DNA from: Isoptericola dokdonensis DS-3
GTDB taxonomy: Bacteria > Actinomycetota > Actinomycetes > Actinomycetales > Cellulomonadaceae
Direction of reading: 5' to 3'
NCBI RefSeq assembly: GCF_001636295.1
Contig: NZ_CP014209.1
Location: 3,162,001-3,226,000 of the forward strand
DNA length: 64,000 nucleotides
The notes beneath the pieces were generated by a model. The model did no database searches and had not been told where the DNA came from. It was given only the letters and a program-made list of their open reading frames with translations. How positions within the stretch are numbered: the first letter of the stretch is position 1; every line of letters starts with the position of its first letter. Of the stretch, positions 9,411 to 53,603 are shown in pieces. Position numbers and translations under genes: made by a program.

Positions 9411-9530
9411 GTCGGCGCACGTCGGCGTGAGTCAGCGCACGACGGCGCGAGTCAGCGCACGACGGCGCGAGTCAGCGCAGGTCGGCGTGAGTCAGCGCAC
9501 GACGGCGCGAGTCAACGCGCAAGGGCCCGA
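9411..9530 (+). repeat. Tandem array of a 20-bp repeat (array 1)
   Basis: Six head-to-tail units of exactly 20 bp begin at 9411, 9431, 9451, 9471, 9491 and 9511. Three are identical (GTCAGCGCACGACGGCGCGA). Two vary at a few positions (GGTCGGCGT in the second half), and the last is degenerate. The sequence lies just after the asd stop and before its terminator. The reverse complement of the same unit is tandemly repeated at 9781-9920. No coding frame is convincing. Confidence 0.9.
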
Positions 9531-9552
9531 CGGCGAGAGATCGCCGTCGGGC
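9525..9552 (+). terminator. Intrinsic terminator of lysC-asd
   Basis: A perfect 12-bp stem GCCCGACGGCGA (9525-9536) with a GAGA loop and its complement (9541-9552) is followed by TTCGTCGT. It overlaps the last degenerate unit of the repeat array and ends the asd transcript. Confidence 0.8.
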
Positions 9553-9585
9553 TTCGTCGTGCCTGGGTGACCTGACGGCGTGGCA

Positions 9586-9650
9586 GGACGTGGCAGATGT
9601 GTTGCCACGTCCACCAGACCTGTCAAAGAGGCGTGCGAACTTTGACAGGT
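9586..9650. repeat. Two consecutive hairpins between the repeat arrays
   Basis: GGACGTGGCA (9586-9595) pairs with 9603-9612 around 7 nt, then ACCTGTCAAAG (9618-9628) pairs with 9640-9650 around 11 nt. Both stems are perfect. A shorter palindrome ACATCCG/CGGATGT follows at about 9672-9688. The second is unusually A/T-rich for this genome and could be a protein-binding site. No gene is visible between 9399 and 9991; the stretch holds only these repeats and the promoter of the next gene. Confidence 0.6.
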
Positions 9651-9780
9651 GGGACGGACGAGCCGTTCATCACATCCGTGACGGATGTCGGCGCGACCCC
9701 GGCCGCGCGCGAGGCGCTCTGCGCCACCGGTCGGCGCTCTATGCAGGGTTCGAAGAGGTCGGACGGCGTGCCGTGCCGTG

Positions 9781-9920
9781 TCGCGCCGATCTGCGCTGAC
9801 TCGCGCCCGGCTGCGCTGACTCGCGCCGTCGTGCGCTGACTGGCGCCGCTGTGCGCTGACTCGCGCCCGGCTGCGCTGACTCGCGCCCGACCGCGCTGAC
9901 TCGCGCCGACGGGTTGACGC
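9781..9920 (-). repeat. Tandem array of the same 20-bp repeat, inverted (array 2)
   Basis: Units of exactly 20 bp start at 9781, 9801, 9821, 9841, 9861 and 9881, with a degenerate seventh at 9901. The unit TCGCGCCGTCGTGCGCTGAC (9821-9840) is the exact reverse complement of the array 1 unit. TCGCGCC and GCGCTGAC are nearly constant while about five central bases vary. The last unit supplies a TTGACG -35-like box (9914-9919) for the downstream GntR gene. Confidence 0.9.
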
Positions 9921-17538: not shown

Positions 17539-17552
17539 CCCTCGAGGCCGTC

Positions 17553-17607
17553 GAGCGTCTCTGGATGTCGCGATGCGAGCGCTGATGCGCGACGTCCAGA
17601 GACGCTC
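17553..17607. repeat. Palindromic repeat flanking the DUF559 gene (downstream copy)
   Basis: Arms 17553-17572 (GAGCGTCTCTGGATGTCGCG) and 17588-17607 pair at 19 of 20 positions around a 15-nt loop. The element lies between the convergent DAHP synthase and DUF559 genes, 6 bp from the latter's stop. A related palindrome is on the other side of the DUF559 gene (18656-18710), and a 17-bp half copy occurs at 25463-25479. It could act as a bidirectional terminator, but the repetition suggests a dispersed element. Confidence 0.8.
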
Positions 17608-17613
17608 GGCCCG

Positions 17614-18594: not shown

Positions 18595-18655
18595 CTGGGG
18601 GAGCGAACCAGGTCGGCGGGCGCGCCGCCGTCGTCATCCACAGGTCTCGTCCGTC

Positions 18656-18710
18656 GAGCGTCTCTGAATGTCGGGAGTCCGGCGTTGGTTCGCGACATTC
18701 AGAGACGCTC
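18656..18710. repeat. Palindromic repeat flanking the DUF559 gene (upstream copy)
   Basis: Perfect 18-bp arms 18656-18673 (GAGCGTCTCTGAATGTCG) and 18693-18710 surround 19 nt. The sequence differs from the copy at 17553-17607 mainly by compensated changes in the arms (GGATGTC/GACGTCC against GAATGTC/GACATTC) and by a different loop. It lies 61 bp upstream of the DUF559 start and 50 bp before the sigK promoter. Confidence 0.8.
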
Positions 18711-18759
18711 GGCGGACGGGCGCTCGGCGGTGGCGGCCGTGGCTGCGGTGGGGATGGAC

Positions 18760-23964: not shown

Positions 23965-23983
23965 CGAGCCCGGGCGCGGGCGT

Positions 23984-24028
23984 CCCCACCCGTCTCGCGC
24001 CGGCCCCCGCGGAGCGGGACGGGTGGGG
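23984..24028. terminator. Hairpin between convergent dipZ and DUF4232 gene
   Basis: Perfect 11-bp arms CCCCACCCGTC (23984-23994) and 24018-24028, with further GC pairing inside. It lies between two converging genes, so it is probably a shared terminator. Confidence 0.55.
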
Positions 24029-24044
24029 TCGCTCGCGCCCGGTC

Positions 24045-25385
24045 TCAGGGGACGGACCACCCCGACGACGCCTGGACCCACGGGCTGACGCGCACCTCGG
24101 CGCCGTCGAGGACGTCGAGGGTGGCCGGCCCGGCCTCCGTGCCGAGACCCGGCGCGATCTCGGGGACGAGGCGCACGGGGTCGGCGTCGGTGACGGTCGT
24201 GACCTCCACCGCGACGGTGACGTCCGGGTCGTTCGCGGTGGACATGGCACCCCACTGGAGGGTCGACATCACGGACTCCCCGGCGGGCACCACCACCCGC
24301 CCCGGGACGACGCCGTCCGCCGCGGCGACGACCCGGACGTCGTCCTGGGGTGCGTCGGCGGCGTCGAGGAACACGAGCCGGGGCACGCCGTCGACGGCGC
24401 ACGACCGGCCGGACGTGTTGCGCGCCAGGACGGAGAGGTAGCGCTGCCCGGCTGCGGCGTCCGGGGCGGAGAGGGTCGGTTCGAGGTCGTCGCCGGTGCA
24501 GTCGGGCGCGTCGTGATCCGCGGGCCAGGCCTCCACGCCGTCGGGCAGGGGCACCGTGTGCGGCACGACGGCGGGTGGTTCGAGCCCTGCGACCCAGACC
24601 TGCACCGGCTCGCCGTCCGGCACGGTGATCTCGGCCTCGGAGGGGGTCACGACGGACGCCTCGTCCTGCGTGGCGAGCCACGCGGCGAGCTCCTGCGCGG
24701 CGGCCGCCGACGTGGCGGTCACGGTGAGCAGGCTCGGCGACGCCTGGTTCCACGTGAAGACGGCGGAGGTGACGTCGGGGCGGGCGGCGACGTCGGCGAC
24801 GAGCCGGGCGGTGGCCTCCCGCGGCACGAGCCCGGCCGCGTACGTGGCGGTGCCGTCCGCGGTCCGCAGGGTGGCCGGTGGGGTGAACAGGTCGGCCCGG
24901 GCCACGAGGTCCGCGGCGACGGCGAGGTCGGCCGGGTCCGGCACGGTGACGGTGGTGTCGTCGACGGACACCGCACCGGCGGCCAGCAGCCGGTAGGCGA
25001 GCGCGACGGTGCCGTCGTCGGGCGAGTAGAGCTCGACGGGGCGCTCGCCGGCGTCGTCCGGCTCACCGGAGACGACCGTGACGTGGACGGCCGACGGCGT
25101 GCCCCAGCCGGTCGGGGCGAGCGCGGACGCGGCGTCGTCGGCGGCCTGCTGCGCGGCGTCGGGCGCGAGGTCGGGGTCGAGGTGCACGGTGACGCTCACG
25201 GCCCCGCCGTCGGCCTCGTCCCAGGCCTGCGCCTCGACGTCGACGACGCCGGGTACCTCGGCGGCCTGCCCGACGTCGTCGCGGACCCCGGACGGCAGCC
25301 CCGCGTCCCACGGGCTCCACCAGAGCAGGCCGAGGAGCGCGACCGCCACCACGACGACGGTCAGGGCGGCGAGGCGGCGAGGCAC
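24045..25385 (-). CDS. Membrane-anchored protein with a C-terminal DUF4232 domain
   Basis: 446 residues. One N-terminal helix (LAALTVVVVAVALLGLLWW) anchors it, with the rest outside the cytoplasm. Residues about 40-270 hold two or three similar alpha/beta repeats without a recognised family, each with D-x-A-A-Q/D helices. The C-terminal 150 residues match DUF4232: DCTGDDLEPTLSAPDAAAGQRYLSVLARNTSGRSCAVDGVPRLVF gives the two paired cysteines and the N-x-S-G-x-x-C core. The function is unknown. The start is GTG 25385, preceded by CAGGAT seven nt upstream. Confidence 0.78.
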   Translation of the reverse strand: MPRRLAALTVVVVAVALLGLLWWSPWDAGLPSGVRDDVGQAAEVPGVVDVEAQAWDEADGGAVSVTVHLDPDLAPDAAQQAADDAASALAPTGWGTPSAVHVTVVSGEPDDAGERPVELYSPDDGTVALAYRLLAAGAVSVDDTTVTVPDPADLAVAADLVARADLFTPPATLRTADGTATYAAGLVPREATARLVADVAARPDVTSAVFTWNQASPSLLTVTATSAAAAQELAAWLATQDEASVVTPSEAEITVPDGEPVQVWVAGLEPPAVVPHTVPLPDGVEAWPADHDAPDCTGDDLEPTLSAPDAAAGQRYLSVLARNTSGRSCAVDGVPRLVFLDAADAPQDDVRVVAAADGVVPGRVVVPAGESVMSTLQWGAMSTANDPDVTVAVEVTTVTDADPVRLVPEIAPGLGTEAGPATLDVLDGAEVRVSPWVQASSGWSVP

Positions 25386-38216: not shown

Positions 38217-38375
38217 ATGGCTACCACGTGGGAGTACGCGACCATCCCCCTCCTGATCCACAACACCAAGGCGATCCTCGACCAGTGGGGTGCGGACGGC
38301 TGGGAGCTGGTCCAGGTCGTGCCCGGACCTGACGGCACCGGCCTCGTGGCCTACCTCAAGCGTCCCGGGGCGTGA
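38217..38375 (+). CDS. DUF4177-like small protein
   Basis: 52 residues, too short for many gene finders. It reads MATTWEYATIPLLIHNTKAILDQW, then GADGWELVQVVPGPDGTGLVAYLKRP (split here only for length). WEY at the N-terminus and DGWELVQV are DUF4177 hallmarks. The function is unknown. ATG 38217 lies 6 nt after TACCAT (38205-38210), so it is likely leaderless. Its stop overlaps the RidA start (GTGA), which indicates cotranslation; this pairing recurs upstream of ridA and crp in actinobacteria as I recall. Confidence 0.8.
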   Translation: MATTWEYATIPLLIHNTKAILDQWGADGWELVQVVPGPDGTGLVAYLKRPGA

Positions 38376-38848
38376 CCGTCGTGAGCGTCGAGGCACGCCT
38401 CGCCGAGCTCGGCATCACCCTCCCGGGCGTCGCCGCACCCGTCGCGGCCTACCAGCCCGCCGTCCGCTCCGGTGCGCACGTCTACACGGCCGGGCAGCTC
38501 CCGTTCGTCGACGGCGCCCTGCCCGTCACCGGCAAGGTCGGCGACGGCGAAGGCCTCGTCGACCCGGCGACCGCCGCGGACCTAGCCCGTACCTGCGCGC
38601 TCAACGCCCTCGCGGCCGTCCGCAGCGTCGCCGGCACCCTCGACGGCGTCCGCATCGTCAAGGTCACGGGCTTCGTCGCGAGCGACCCGTCGTTCACCGG
38701 TCAGCCGGCCGTCCTCAACGGGGCCAGCACCGTCCTCGGCGAGATCTTCGGCGACGCGGGCACCCATGCCCGCTCCGCCGTCGGCGTCGCGGTCCTGCCG
38801 CTGGACTCCCCGGTCGAGGTCGAGATCATCGCGGAGCTCCCCGCCTGA
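38372..38848 (+). CDS. RidA family protein
   Basis: 158 residues. It has the YjgF/RidA fold of the longer subtype (YjgF_endoribonc): LAELGITLPGVAAPVAAYQPAVRSGAHVYTAGQLPFVDGALPVTGKVG at the start, and the ACALNALAAVRSVAGTLDGV helix. The final catalytic Arg of canonical RidA (CxxR...E) is replaced by NGASTVLGEIFG, so enamine deaminase activity is uncertain. Canonical RidA hydrolyses reactive enamines from PLP enzymes. It overlaps the DUF4177-like gene. Confidence 0.88.
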   Translation: MTVVSVEARLAELGITLPGVAAPVAAYQPAVRSGAHVYTAGQLPFVDGALPVTGKVGDGEGLVDPATAADLARTCALNALAAVRSVAGTLDGVRIVKVTGFVASDPSFTGQPAVLNGASTVLGEIFGDAGTHARSAVGVAVLPLDSPVEVEIIAELPA

Positions 38849-38885: not shown

Positions 38886-38984
38886 GCGGGGTGACGGTGA
38901 GGTGCGCGCGGCCGCGTTCACGCGCCCCAGGGGGCGCTCCACCTCGGGCAGGAGACGGCCGCGCGCACCACACCGCCACCCCGC
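38886..38984 (+). repeat. Structured intergenic element A (99 bp)
   Basis: Arms 38886-38914 and 38956-38984 pair at 27 of 29 positions. The loop reads CGTTCAC, a hairpin GCGCCCC/GGGGCGC (38922-38928, 38931-38937), then TCCACCTCGGG. Element B nearby has other stem sequences but the same loop bases, in the opposite orientation. The intergenic region 38849-39198 contains these two elements and no gene. Confidence 0.8.
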
Positions 38985-39069
38985 TCCGTCGTCGGCTCAC
39001 GTCCGGCGCACGACGACGACGCATCGTGACCACAGGTGTCGTCGAGCGAGGCGCGACCCAGACGACGAA

Positions 39070-39167
39070 GCGGGAGGGCGAGGGTGCTCCGCGTCGTCGT
39101 CCCACCCGAAGTGGAGGTCGCGCAGCGACCGTGAACGCGACGACGCGGAGCACCCTCGCCCTCCCGC
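39070..39167 (-). repeat. Structured intergenic element B (98 bp)
   Basis: Arms 39070-39099 and 39138-39167 are perfectly complementary over 30 bp. On the minus strand the loop reads CGTTCAC, a hairpin GGTCGC/GCGACC, then TCCACTTCGGG, matching element A. Both elements are followed by a CTYCGTCGTC sequence in their own orientation. It lies 31 bp from the crp stop and may also terminate that gene. Confidence 0.8.
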
Positions 39168-39198: not shown

Positions 39199-39888
39199 TC
39201 AGCGGGCGCGACGTTCCAGCCGGTCGAGGTCGAGGAGCACGACGGCGCGGCCCTCGCGGCGCACCCAGCCGCGGGTGGCGAAGTCGGCCAGCGCCTTGTT
39301 GACGGTCTCGCGGGACGCGCCGACGAGCTGGGCGAGCTCTTCCTGCGTGAGGTCGTGCGCGACGCGGACGCCCTCGTCGTTGGTCTCGCCGAACCGGTTG
39401 GACAGGTCGAGCAGCGCCTTGGCGACCCGGCCGGGGACGTCGGAGAAGACGAGGTCCGCGAGGGTCTCGTTGGTGCGGCGCAGACGGCGGGCGAGCGCAC
39501 CGAGGAGCGTCGTGGCGACGCTGGGGTGCTGGGCGATCCACTGCACGAGGGCCTGGTGCCGCAGCTCGTAGATGAGCGCCTCGGACACCGACGACGCGGT
39601 GGCGGTGCGGGGGCCGGGGTCGAACAGGGAGAGCTCGCCGAACATCTCCCCGGGGCCGAGGATCGACAGGAGGTTCTCGCGGCCGTCGCTCGACCGGCGT
39701 CCGAGCTTGATCTTGCCCTGCGCGATCACGTAGAGACGGTCGCCCGGCTCGCCCTCGCGGAACAGGACGTCCCCGCGGCTCAGCTCCACGGGCACCATGG
39801 AGGCGAAGAGCGCCTTGGACTCCTCGCTCTCCATGTCCGAGAAGAGGGGGGCAGAGAGCACGACGGTGTCGTCCACAGCATTCCTCAC
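39199..39888 (-). CDS. Crp/Fnr family transcriptional regulator (GlxR-like)
   Basis: 229 residues. The cyclic-nucleotide-binding domain is at about 10-125, with [60 protein letters not shown], including the GEL and R-T-A contacts to cAMP. The C-terminal winged helix has [30 protein letters not shown]. Length and sequence match the actinobacterial global regulator Crp/GlxR, found next to nth as here. The start is ATG 39888. Confidence 0.94.
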
Positions 39889-53512: not shown

Positions 53513-53543
53513 GGCCGGCGTCCCCGCCCGACGACCCGGAAGC

Positions 53544-53595
53544 GGACGCACCGCGGGCCCCCGACGGGTGCGCGTCGGGGGCCCGTGGTGCGTCC
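53544..53595. terminator. Bidirectional terminator between dtd and the LPRTG gene
   Basis: 22-bp arms (53544-53565 and 53574-53595, starting GGACGCACC) match at 21 positions, with an 8-nt loop. Convergent genes end on both sides. Confidence 0.85.
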
Positions 53596-53603
53596 GAGGG
53601 AGC

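What the first reader, a model, noticed from the sequence alone, without database searches (positions are those of the whole stretch)
38886..39167. Two 98-99 bp hairpin elements with covarying stems and a conserved loop, in opposite orientations
Element A (38886-38984) and element B (39070-39167, minus strand) each have a 29-30 bp outer stem. Inside is CGTTCAC, a second short hairpin, and TCCACYTCGGG. The outer stems differ at many positions and the inner hairpins are unrelated in sequence (GCGCCCC/GGGGCGC against GGTCGC/GCGACC), yet pairing stays nearly perfect while the unpaired bases stay the same. That pattern is expected from selection on structure, as in an RNA element or a folded single-stranded DNA substrate of a REP-like or rolling-circle enzyme. 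Both are followed by CTYCGTCGTC. I know no named family with this layout.
Basis: partly seen in the sequence, partly recalled or inferred. Interest (0 to 1): 0.8.

Follow-up and report, generated by a model that had tools for sequence, protein, structure and literature searches.

The report
Capped hairpins at bacterial gene ends
These two DNA hairpins belong to a family of dozens of copies in one soil-bacterium lineage: most sit just behind a gene, have freely changing but closely matching arms, and end in the same conserved cap, so this is probably a previously unnamed kind of gene-end structure whose cap has an unknown partner.

Summary
The two hairpins belong to a family with 57 full copies and one partial in the window's own Isoptericola-type genome. 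Strict-pattern copies occur in all 18 genomes of the genus searched, in 4 of 18 other genera of the family and, unexpectedly, 10 times in one rumen Eubacterium assembly. Architecture: arms of 24 bp and more with almost any sequence, capped by CGYTCAC - short hairpin - TSCRCTTCSSG (main forms) - short linker ending in A. At sites between converging genes copies lie nearer the stop codon of the gene on their own strand (38 of 40; 37 of 38), with T enrichment on the 3' side. At orthologous sites arms are often rewritten yet paired, with double transversions and few G-U pairs (0.74%), which suggests DNA template switching besides selection; the cap is conserved about as well as neighbouring DNA or better. 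Best reading: an end-of-transcript (terminator/REP-like) hairpin with a cap read by an unknown factor. REP/RAYT is not supported (no Y1 transposase in 22 genomes; no separate 3' ends in five). No Rfam family matches. Function is inferred; no RNA data.

The parts
38886..38914 (+). Element A, 5' arm of outer stem
   Evidence: inverted repeat I2, 93% complementary
38915..38921 (+). Element A, 5' part of the cap: CGTTCAC
   Evidence: pattern hit at genome 3200915; invariant in A1, whose members were chosen by this pattern
38922..38937 (+). Element A, inner hairpin GCGCCCC-AG-GGGGCGC
   Evidence: inner pairs covary across copies
38938..38948 (+). Element A, 3' part of the cap: TCCACCTCGGG
38949..38955 (+). 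Element A, linker CAGGAGA
   Evidence: the last linker base is A in 151 of 154 parsed copies
38956..38984 (+). Element A, 3' arm of outer stem
38985..38993 (+). Element A, weakly T-rich tail TCCGTCGTC
   Evidence: T enrichment on this side only over 57 own copies
39138..39167 (-). Element B, 5' arm of outer stem (minus strand)
   Evidence: inverted repeat I1, 100% complementary
39131..39137 (-). Element B, 5' part of the cap: CGTTCAC
   Evidence: pattern hit at genome 3201105-3201137 minus
39116..39130 (-). Element B, inner hairpin GGTCGC-TGC-GCGACC
39105..39115 (-). Element B, 3' part of the cap: TCCACTTCGGG
39100..39104 (-). Element B, linker TGGGA
39070..39099 (-). Element B, 3' arm of outer stem
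39060..39069 (-). Element B, weakly T-rich tail TTCGTCGTCT
38372..38848 (+). RidA/YjgF-like gene; element A starts 37 nt behind its stop
   Evidence: ORF; PF14588, PF01042
39199..39888 (-). CRP/FNR-type regulator gene; element B starts 31 nt behind its stop
   Evidence: ORF; PF00027, PF13545

Best explanation
A family of end-of-transcript hairpins. SHOWN: each unit is a hairpin of 82-119 nt in the own genome (most 91-104), mostly between converging genes and there nearly always nearer the stop codon of the gene on its own strand, with T enrichment on its 3' side only; the arms may have almost any sequence, and an asymmetric cap of about 40 nt (CGYTCAC, inner hairpin, mostly TCCACTTCGGG or a few related forms, short linker ending in A) is what stays constant, with a covarying pair between the third cap base and the fourth base of the 3' strand (T-A or C-G). 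INFERRED: in the transcript the hairpin ends transcription and/or blocks 3' exonucleases, separating converging genes, and the cap is the binding site of a trans-acting factor (protein or RNA) not yet identified. INFERRED: the arms stay complementary largely because replication repeatedly switches template between them, which would explain near-perfect Watson-Crick pairing and rewritten arms at orthologous sites, while selection holds the cap and the existence of a hairpin. Core-less hairpins at some orthologous sites suggest that the hairpin role can do without the cap.
For: Copy number and spread. Position: 40 of 54 own copies outside ORF calls lie between convergent genes, and 38 of those 40 lie nearer the stop of the gene on the CGTTCAC strand (the 38 counted by eye from its table, recounted). 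In named-genome loci L131-L246: 37 of 38 convergent copies (p 3e-10), tandem 12 sense to 4 antisense, 1 divergent, median 19 nt from the sense stop to the 28-nt arm (of 82 distinct copies 17 fell in ORF calls and 10 at locus edges and were set aside; copies at orthologous sites are not independent; background gene pairs with gaps of 90 nt or more: 60 convergent of 289). Tail: T at 61%, 46%, 23% of 57 copies at +1 to +3; the mirror A on the 5' side 4%, 9%, 2%. Arms: 97.2% of cells paired, 26 of 31 pairs with double changes; 95.7% Watson-Crick, 0.74% G-U, 1.8% A-C, 1.8% other over 153 elements x 24 pairs (copies had to pair at about 17 of 24 or better to enter). G000 against G010, 31 matched pairs: 85 double WC-to-WC changes (52 transversions), 49 one-sided changes, 7 with both sides changed and one state unpaired. 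Cap identity between these orthologues 99.1% (5' strand) and 94.1% (3' strand) with a search that presumes a cap, against 79.3% for outer arms; with a search for hairpins of any interior 96.0% and 90.6%, two opposite-orientation cases included; flanking alignments 71-97% in the rows shown, mostly 84-93%. Third cap base with its partner: T-A 128, C-G 20, T-C 5, T-G 1 of 154; 2 of 31 orthologous pairs switched C-G to T-A on both sides, none on one side. Hairpins without the cap at orthologous sites: G010 at 1736604 and 3433630, crp 3' ends of G001, G005 and G019 (sequences, read by eye). Template switching that creates and perfects stems is in print: PMC8794818 (outline, abstract and passages seen); the excess of G-C over C-G (1613 to 1090) and T-A over A-T (444 to 368) pairs goes the way that paper describes.
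Against: No RNA data. The tail is a poor U-tract, and the consensus terminator scan finds nothing at the two elements (its loop limit of 8 nt excludes them by construction). In tandem contexts of the own genome 7 of 13 copies are antisense, and in the own genome many copies lie 50-200 nt from the stop. In Eubacterium 3 of 10 copies are antisense and several lie in what look like operon spacers (rpmA-obgE, phoH-ybeY, flgK-flgL; genes named from the translations by recall), where a terminator would be odd. One-sided mismatches are A-C more often than G-U (65 to 27, p 9e-5; 25 to 6 between two species), the opposite of what folding of the CGTTCAC-strand RNA predicts. Similar arms and flanks at unrelated sites inside G000 show that whole units have also been copied about. 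Three G010 regions hold a capped hairpin in the opposite orientation to G000 (1772794, 3141815, 3424264).
Confidence: 0.5

Rival explanations
1. A mobile DNA element: the capped hairpin (or the cap alone) is a non-autonomous transposable unit recognised as folded single-stranded DNA, and gene-end placement merely reflects where insertions are tolerated.
For: Dozens of dispersed copies; groups of near-identical units at unrelated sites in G000; patchy occurrence in one Eubacterium assembly and in 0 of 98 of its relatives; no element at five orthologous G010 sites (1165361, 1911125, 1958598, 3050067, 3519123); low-GC arms around a GC-rich cap in Eubacterium; REP-like placement.
Against: No Y1 transposase in 22 genomes; no solitary exact 3' ends in five genomes; strong orientation bias relative to genes; many copies kept at orthologous sites across species. 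No other transposase family was searched for.
Confidence: 0.2
2. A cis-acting RNA regulatory element (protein- or ligand-binding, or self-cleaving) whose work is not termination, for example a 3' UTR stability or processing signal.
For: Conserved, mostly unpaired cap with internal covariation; position behind stop codons, mostly on the sense strand at convergent sites; Eubacterium copies between genes that look co-transcribed.
Against: No Rfam family at gathering score in the window elements or in nine further loci, Eubacterium copies included; only sub-threshold matches at E up to 10; the preference for converging genes fits termination better; G-U pairs are rare.
Confidence: 0.2
3. Ordinary strong terminator hairpins whose similar loops are shared by recent copying inside the genome, with no function in the cap.
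For: Core-less long hairpins exist at some orthologous sites; the window has other long inverted repeats; whole-unit duplication inside G000.
Against: The cap is present in all 18 genus members searched, in other genera and in a Eubacterium while arms at the same sites have turned over; cap identity is about that of neighbouring DNA or above; internal cap covariation.
Confidence: 0.08

Closest known systems
REP / BIME elements with RAYT transposases (e.g. REPINs; GTAG families)
   Same: Short dispersed palindromes in intergenic space, often in head-to-head pairs, behind genes.
   Different: GTAG stems are 5-13 bp and tagged by an unpaired GTAG (passages of PMC3733652); here arms are 24 bp and more of free sequence, the constant part is at the loop, and no Y1 transposase was found.
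CGTC-tagged REPs
   Same: Palindromic repeats without a linked transposase, mostly as head-to-head dimers (passages of PMC3733652).
   Different: CGTC stems are 8-9 bp with 4-5 nt loops; the layout here is unlike that.
Intrinsic (Rho-independent) terminators
   Same: Stable GC-rich hairpin behind a gene, T enrichment on the 3' side only.
   Different: Arms two to three times longer than usual (recalled), very weak T tract, and a conserved structured cap.
Small dispersed repeats (SDR) of cyanobacteria (Elhai 2008, recalled, not read)
   Same: Very small dispersed elements with compensatory changes, possibly mobile (recalled).
   Different: SDRs are 21-27 nt (recalled); no long free-sequence arms.
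Template-switch hairpins (PMC8794818, outline, abstract and passages seen)
   Same: Perfect stems renewed by double changes; excess of G-C and U-A pairs.
   Different: That paper describes a mutational process, not an element family; here it would act around one fixed cap.

Membership tests
REP/RAYT elements | A Y1 (PF01797) transposase of the family in the genome | tested here: not met
   0 of 22 genomes, 12 of them carriers; 5 of 14 control genomes ring
REP/RAYT elements | Short palindrome with unpaired GTAG foot | tested here: not met
   Constant unpaired bases lie at the loop end; arms 24 bp and more, free in sequence
REP/RAYT elements | Extragenic, many copies, head-to-head pairs | tested here: met
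   54 of 58 own hits outside ORF calls; window pair and several other close +/- pairs
Insertion sequence / MITE of one | Ends also found around a longer copy with a transposase gene | tested here: not met
   In four complete genomes the 18 extra exact TCCACTTCGGG sites look like 16S rRNA or rpsB; G058 has none outside elements. Only this end and exact matches were tested
Intrinsic terminator | Sense orientation just behind a stop codon | tested here: met
   38 of 40 and 37 of 38 convergent sites; tandem sites mixed, 6 sense to 7 antisense and 12 to 4
Intrinsic terminator | U-rich tract after the stem | tested here: inconclusive
   T 61/46/23% at +1..+3; consensus scan negative but excludes such loops
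Intrinsic terminator | Transcription ends there | not testable with these tools
   no RNA data held
Known Rfam RNA families | Match at or above gathering score | tested here: not met
   window and nine further loci; sub-threshold hits only at E up to 10
RNA element under selection for pairing | Double (compensatory) changes beyond shuffles | tested here: met
   covariation score 0.718 against 0.151 shuffled and 0.086-0.133 slid
RNA element under selection for pairing | G-U tolerated as well as or better than A-C on the RNA strand | tested here: not met
   27 G-U to 65 A-C; 6 to 25

The most novel reading that the evidence does not exclude
The cap itself is the evolving entity: a module of roughly 40-60 nt, identical in its unpaired bases in an actinobacterial family and a rumen Eubacterium, that settles behind stop codons and acquires host-derived perfect arms by template switching around it, i.e. 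one of the smallest mobile elements known, building its own palindrome from local sequence and serving (or exploiting) transcript ends. The Eubacterium copies fit this: low-GC, host-like arms of about 16-22 nt (read by eye), one overlapping the last codons of phoH, around the same GC-rich cap.
Probability: 0.2. Interest if true: 0.85.

Novelty: new variant of a known kind. Interest (0 to 1): 0.6.

Why it matters
It would be an unnamed, abundant gene-end element with a specific conserved cap, so it predicts an unknown factor acting at transcript ends in these actinobacteria. It is also a natural laboratory for a mutational question: dozens of orthologous hairpins whose arms turn over while staying paired let one separate template-switch correction from selection on RNA structure, a point that bears on every covariation-based claim of conserved RNA structure. 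The occurrence in a distant phylum raises the question of how so small a thing travels.

Tried and rejected
(1) REP/RAYT: PF01797 absent in 22 genomes. (2) Cap as one end of an insertion sequence: a search for solitary TCCACTTCGGG in five genomes found, outside the elements, 18 sites in four of them that look like 16S rRNA (14) and rpsB (4), recognised by eye. (3) Phage origin: 53 stretches in IMG/VR carry the pattern; none shows a long outer stem, so I take them as chance. (4) Known RNA: Rfam at gathering and at low threshold. (5) Simple core inversion at G010 sites: for two of the three opposite-orientation sites the arms and surroundings printed differ too much to call it an inversion; for the third (3141815) one search printed another interval, so it was not judged. 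(6) A clean empty site: G001 at crp (GGTC-AC-GACC) and G010 at 3433630 are coreless hairpins; the second could be a deletion between direct GACCGGTC copies, so neither proves insertion. Two of the four coreless hairpins counted (3050067, 3519123) may be chance palindromes. (7) A further pair inside the 3' strand of the cap (b2-b10, C-G to G-C) rests mainly on one subfamily and is not claimed. (8) A UUCG tetraloop in the cap: broken in the CTTCCGG and CTTCCCG subfamilies. (9) Literature: no paper on this family in seven searches of an open-access library (two listed nothing); one search found the template-switch papers. PMC3733652 (passages) and PMC8794818 (outline, abstract, passages) were opened; the others were seen as listings only.

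Bias to note: A1 was seeded by the cap pattern and cut at the best-pairing linker, so its invariant cap columns and its pairing are partly by choice of rows; searches used cap patterns and a minimum of pairing; one search chose the G010 candidate with the most similar arms. The model search and the hairpin-first search are the fairer views. Gene calls are my own codon-usage calls, not annotation. Counts over elements include paralogues and orthologues and are not independent events. Of 57 own copies, one search compared 31 (20 with none found or held in G010, 6 missed by its pattern) and one search compared 42 (13 with no G010 locus held, 2 with one flank only).

Full report
WHAT IS THERE. Both fold far better than shuffled sequence. 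They sit between a RidA/YjgF gene (38372-38848, +) and a CRP/FNR-type gene (39199-39888, -) that converge. Element A is on the strand of ridA and starts 37 nt behind its stop; element B is on the strand of crp and starts 31 nt behind its stop.

THE FAMILY. The cap pattern CGTTCAC-N6..36-TCCACYTCGGG hits 19 times in the own genome and never when reversed. It hits 22 of 58 genomes searched, own genome included: all 18 of the genus, 4 of 18 other genera of the family (one genome each), 0 of 22 from other families of the order. A covariance model from 47 sequences finds 57 full and one partial copy in the own genome at E up to 0.01 and 22 of 56 genomes at E up to 0.001. The same scan shows the same cap, with long stems, in 'Eubacterium sp. 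RGIG8302', a rumen assembly: 10 copies. Its relatives have none (0 of 98). Wider samples outside the family show single, chance-like hits: 15 of 394 Actinomycetes, of which only the own genome and G009 are multi-copy, and 4 of 391 genomes of the Eubacterium's class, of which only G058 is multi-copy. The 53 IMG/VR stretches show no long stem.

ANATOMY. Outer arms of 24 bp and more, free in sequence; cap 5' strand CGYTCAC; an inner hairpin whose pairs covary; cap 3' strand, mostly TCCACTTCGGG (109 of the 154 parsed), with subfamilies TCCACTCCGGG, TCCGCTTCCGG, TGCGCTTCCCG and others; a linker of 5-9 nt in the seeds, last base A in 151 of 154; outer arm; tail often TTCGTCGTC. Structure counts on A1 (46 distinct rows): 97.2% of cells paired, 372 cells with double changes against 92 in shuffles; partners slid by 1-3 columns give 37-46%. 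In 2 of 31 orthologous pairs both bases switched, and in none only one. In Eubacterium a short inner stem (GGGGCA/TGCCCC, in one copy GGAGAC/GTCTCC) lies between cap and variable arms.

POSITION AND STRAND. In the own genome 4 of 58 hits fall inside my ORF calls; of the other 54, 40 lie between converging genes, 13 between tandem genes (6 sense, 7 antisense) and 1 between diverging genes. At converging sites either strand is sense to one gene, so the test is distance: 38 of 40 are nearer the stop of the gene on their own strand (read from the table; binomial p 1.5e-9). In named-genome loci, 82 distinct copies: 37 of 38 convergent copies nearer the sense stop, 12 tandem sense, 4 tandem antisense, 1 divergent, 17 inside ORF calls, 10 at edges; median distance 19 nt. 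In the own genome the distances are longer, 10-200 nt. T enrichment directly behind the stem is on the 3' side only. Together these suggest that the CGTTCAC strand is the transcribed, working strand. In Eubacterium 7 of 10 are sense and 3 antisense; the sense caps start 24-50 nt behind the stop, often between genes of what look like operons.

EVOLUTION. At the crp 3' end a capped sense hairpin forms one orthologous group of 13 loci, with arms that differ greatly and are still paired. The window's pair is kept in several species. Over 153 distinct elements and 24 pairs each, 95.7% are Watson-Crick, 0.74% G-U, 1.77% A-C and 1.77% other; 74 of 153 are perfect. RNA helices usually carry several percent to over ten percent G-U (recalled). 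Between G000 and G010, 31 orthologous pairs (of 57 own copies; 20 with none found or held in G010, 6 missed by the pattern) show 600 unchanged WC pairs, 85 double WC-to-WC changes, 52 of them transversions, 49 one-sided changes, 7 with both sides changed and one state unpaired, 3 unchanged non-pairs. Single mismatches in such long stems should hardly matter to a terminator, so the strictness suggests a DNA-level corrector; template switching between arms is the known one (PMC8794818), and the G-C/U-A excess it predicts is seen. This is inference, and paralogous copying could contribute. The cap behaves differently: identity 99.1% and 94.1% for its strands against 79.3% for the outer arms (a search that presumes a cap); flanks align at 71-97%, mostly 84-93%, in the rows shown. 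A search for any hairpin in the 42 G010 intervals with both flanks aligned found 30 caps in the same orientation, 3 in the opposite one, 4 hairpins without cap and 5 intervals without a hairpin of its threshold, two of which do hold an element with poorer arms; cap identity over the 32 it aligned was 96.0% and 90.6%, two opposite-orientation cases included.

WHAT SPEAKS AGAINST. The one-sided mismatches are A-C rather than G-U, which RNA folding of this strand does not predict. I have no explanation; a strand-specific mutation or repair bias on the extruded hairpin is a guess. Antisense tandem copies, the Eubacterium operon copies and the poor T tract do not fit a pure terminator. Whole units also disperse inside G000, with similar arms and flanks at unrelated sites, so mobility is likely in some form, though no mobilising enzyme was found: only PF01797 was searched.

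MECHANISM, COMMITTED. Most likely (0.5) an end-of-transcript hairpin whose arms are a self-repairing palindrome and whose cap is recognised by a factor. The hairpin's role appears separable from the cap, since coreless hairpins stand at some orthologous sites (G010 at 1736604 and 3433630; G001, G005 and G019 at crp).

NOVELTY. No Rfam family, no paper found (open-access library only). It works like a terminator or REP but fails the defining tests of REP/RAYT. Filed as a new variant of a known kind, with a bolder reading (mobile cap that builds its arms) kept open at 0.2.

Noticed in passing
window 9447-9904; flanks of many elements, e.g. L305 2368-2676, L310, L366: A second repeat family: GCGAGTCAGCGC, often at 20-nt spacing, in many loci plus orientation on one side and minus orientation on the other side of a hairpin; 57 of 411 loci hold it, nearly all from G000 and G010. 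In the window the two half-arrays flank another hairpin (9608-9660). Arrays plus element can be absent at the orthologous G010 site.
   Followed up: partly
window 53543-53596, 18648-18718, 17552-17608, 23966-24046: Other long inverted repeats (21-37 nt arms, 86-96% complementary, short spacers) without the cap; those at 17552 and 18648 resemble each other.
   Followed up: no
L330 1744-1829 and 3394-3479; L009 1477-1563; L319 2469-2554: Four own copies fall inside ORF calls, two of them in one 4.8-kb open frame with a variant cap (CTCGCTCAC...TCCGCTACGGC); coding status not checked.
   Followed up: no
L325 2571-2715 and L336 2451-2614: Tandem copies in which the second cap has a much shorter stem (about 6 bp visible for L325), perhaps a minimal form or a partial duplication.
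   Followed up: no
capped hairpins: One-sided arm mismatches are G-to-A type (A-C) more than C-to-T type (G-U): 65 to 27 over 153 copies, 25 to 6 between two species. Unexplained.
   Followed up: partly
L257 2981 and similar; L259 3022: The 11-mer TCCACTTCGGG also occurs in what look like the group's 16S rRNA genes and the start of rpsB; taken as coincidence.
   Followed up: yes
L296 1501-1586 (probably G031, another genus; its row was not printed): A diverged cap CACTCAC...TCCGTTCGGGG, in which cap bases 2 and 3 and their partners differ in a way that would keep both pairs.
   Followed up: partly
L340 4620-4724: A TPP riboswitch match near one own copy.
   Followed up: no
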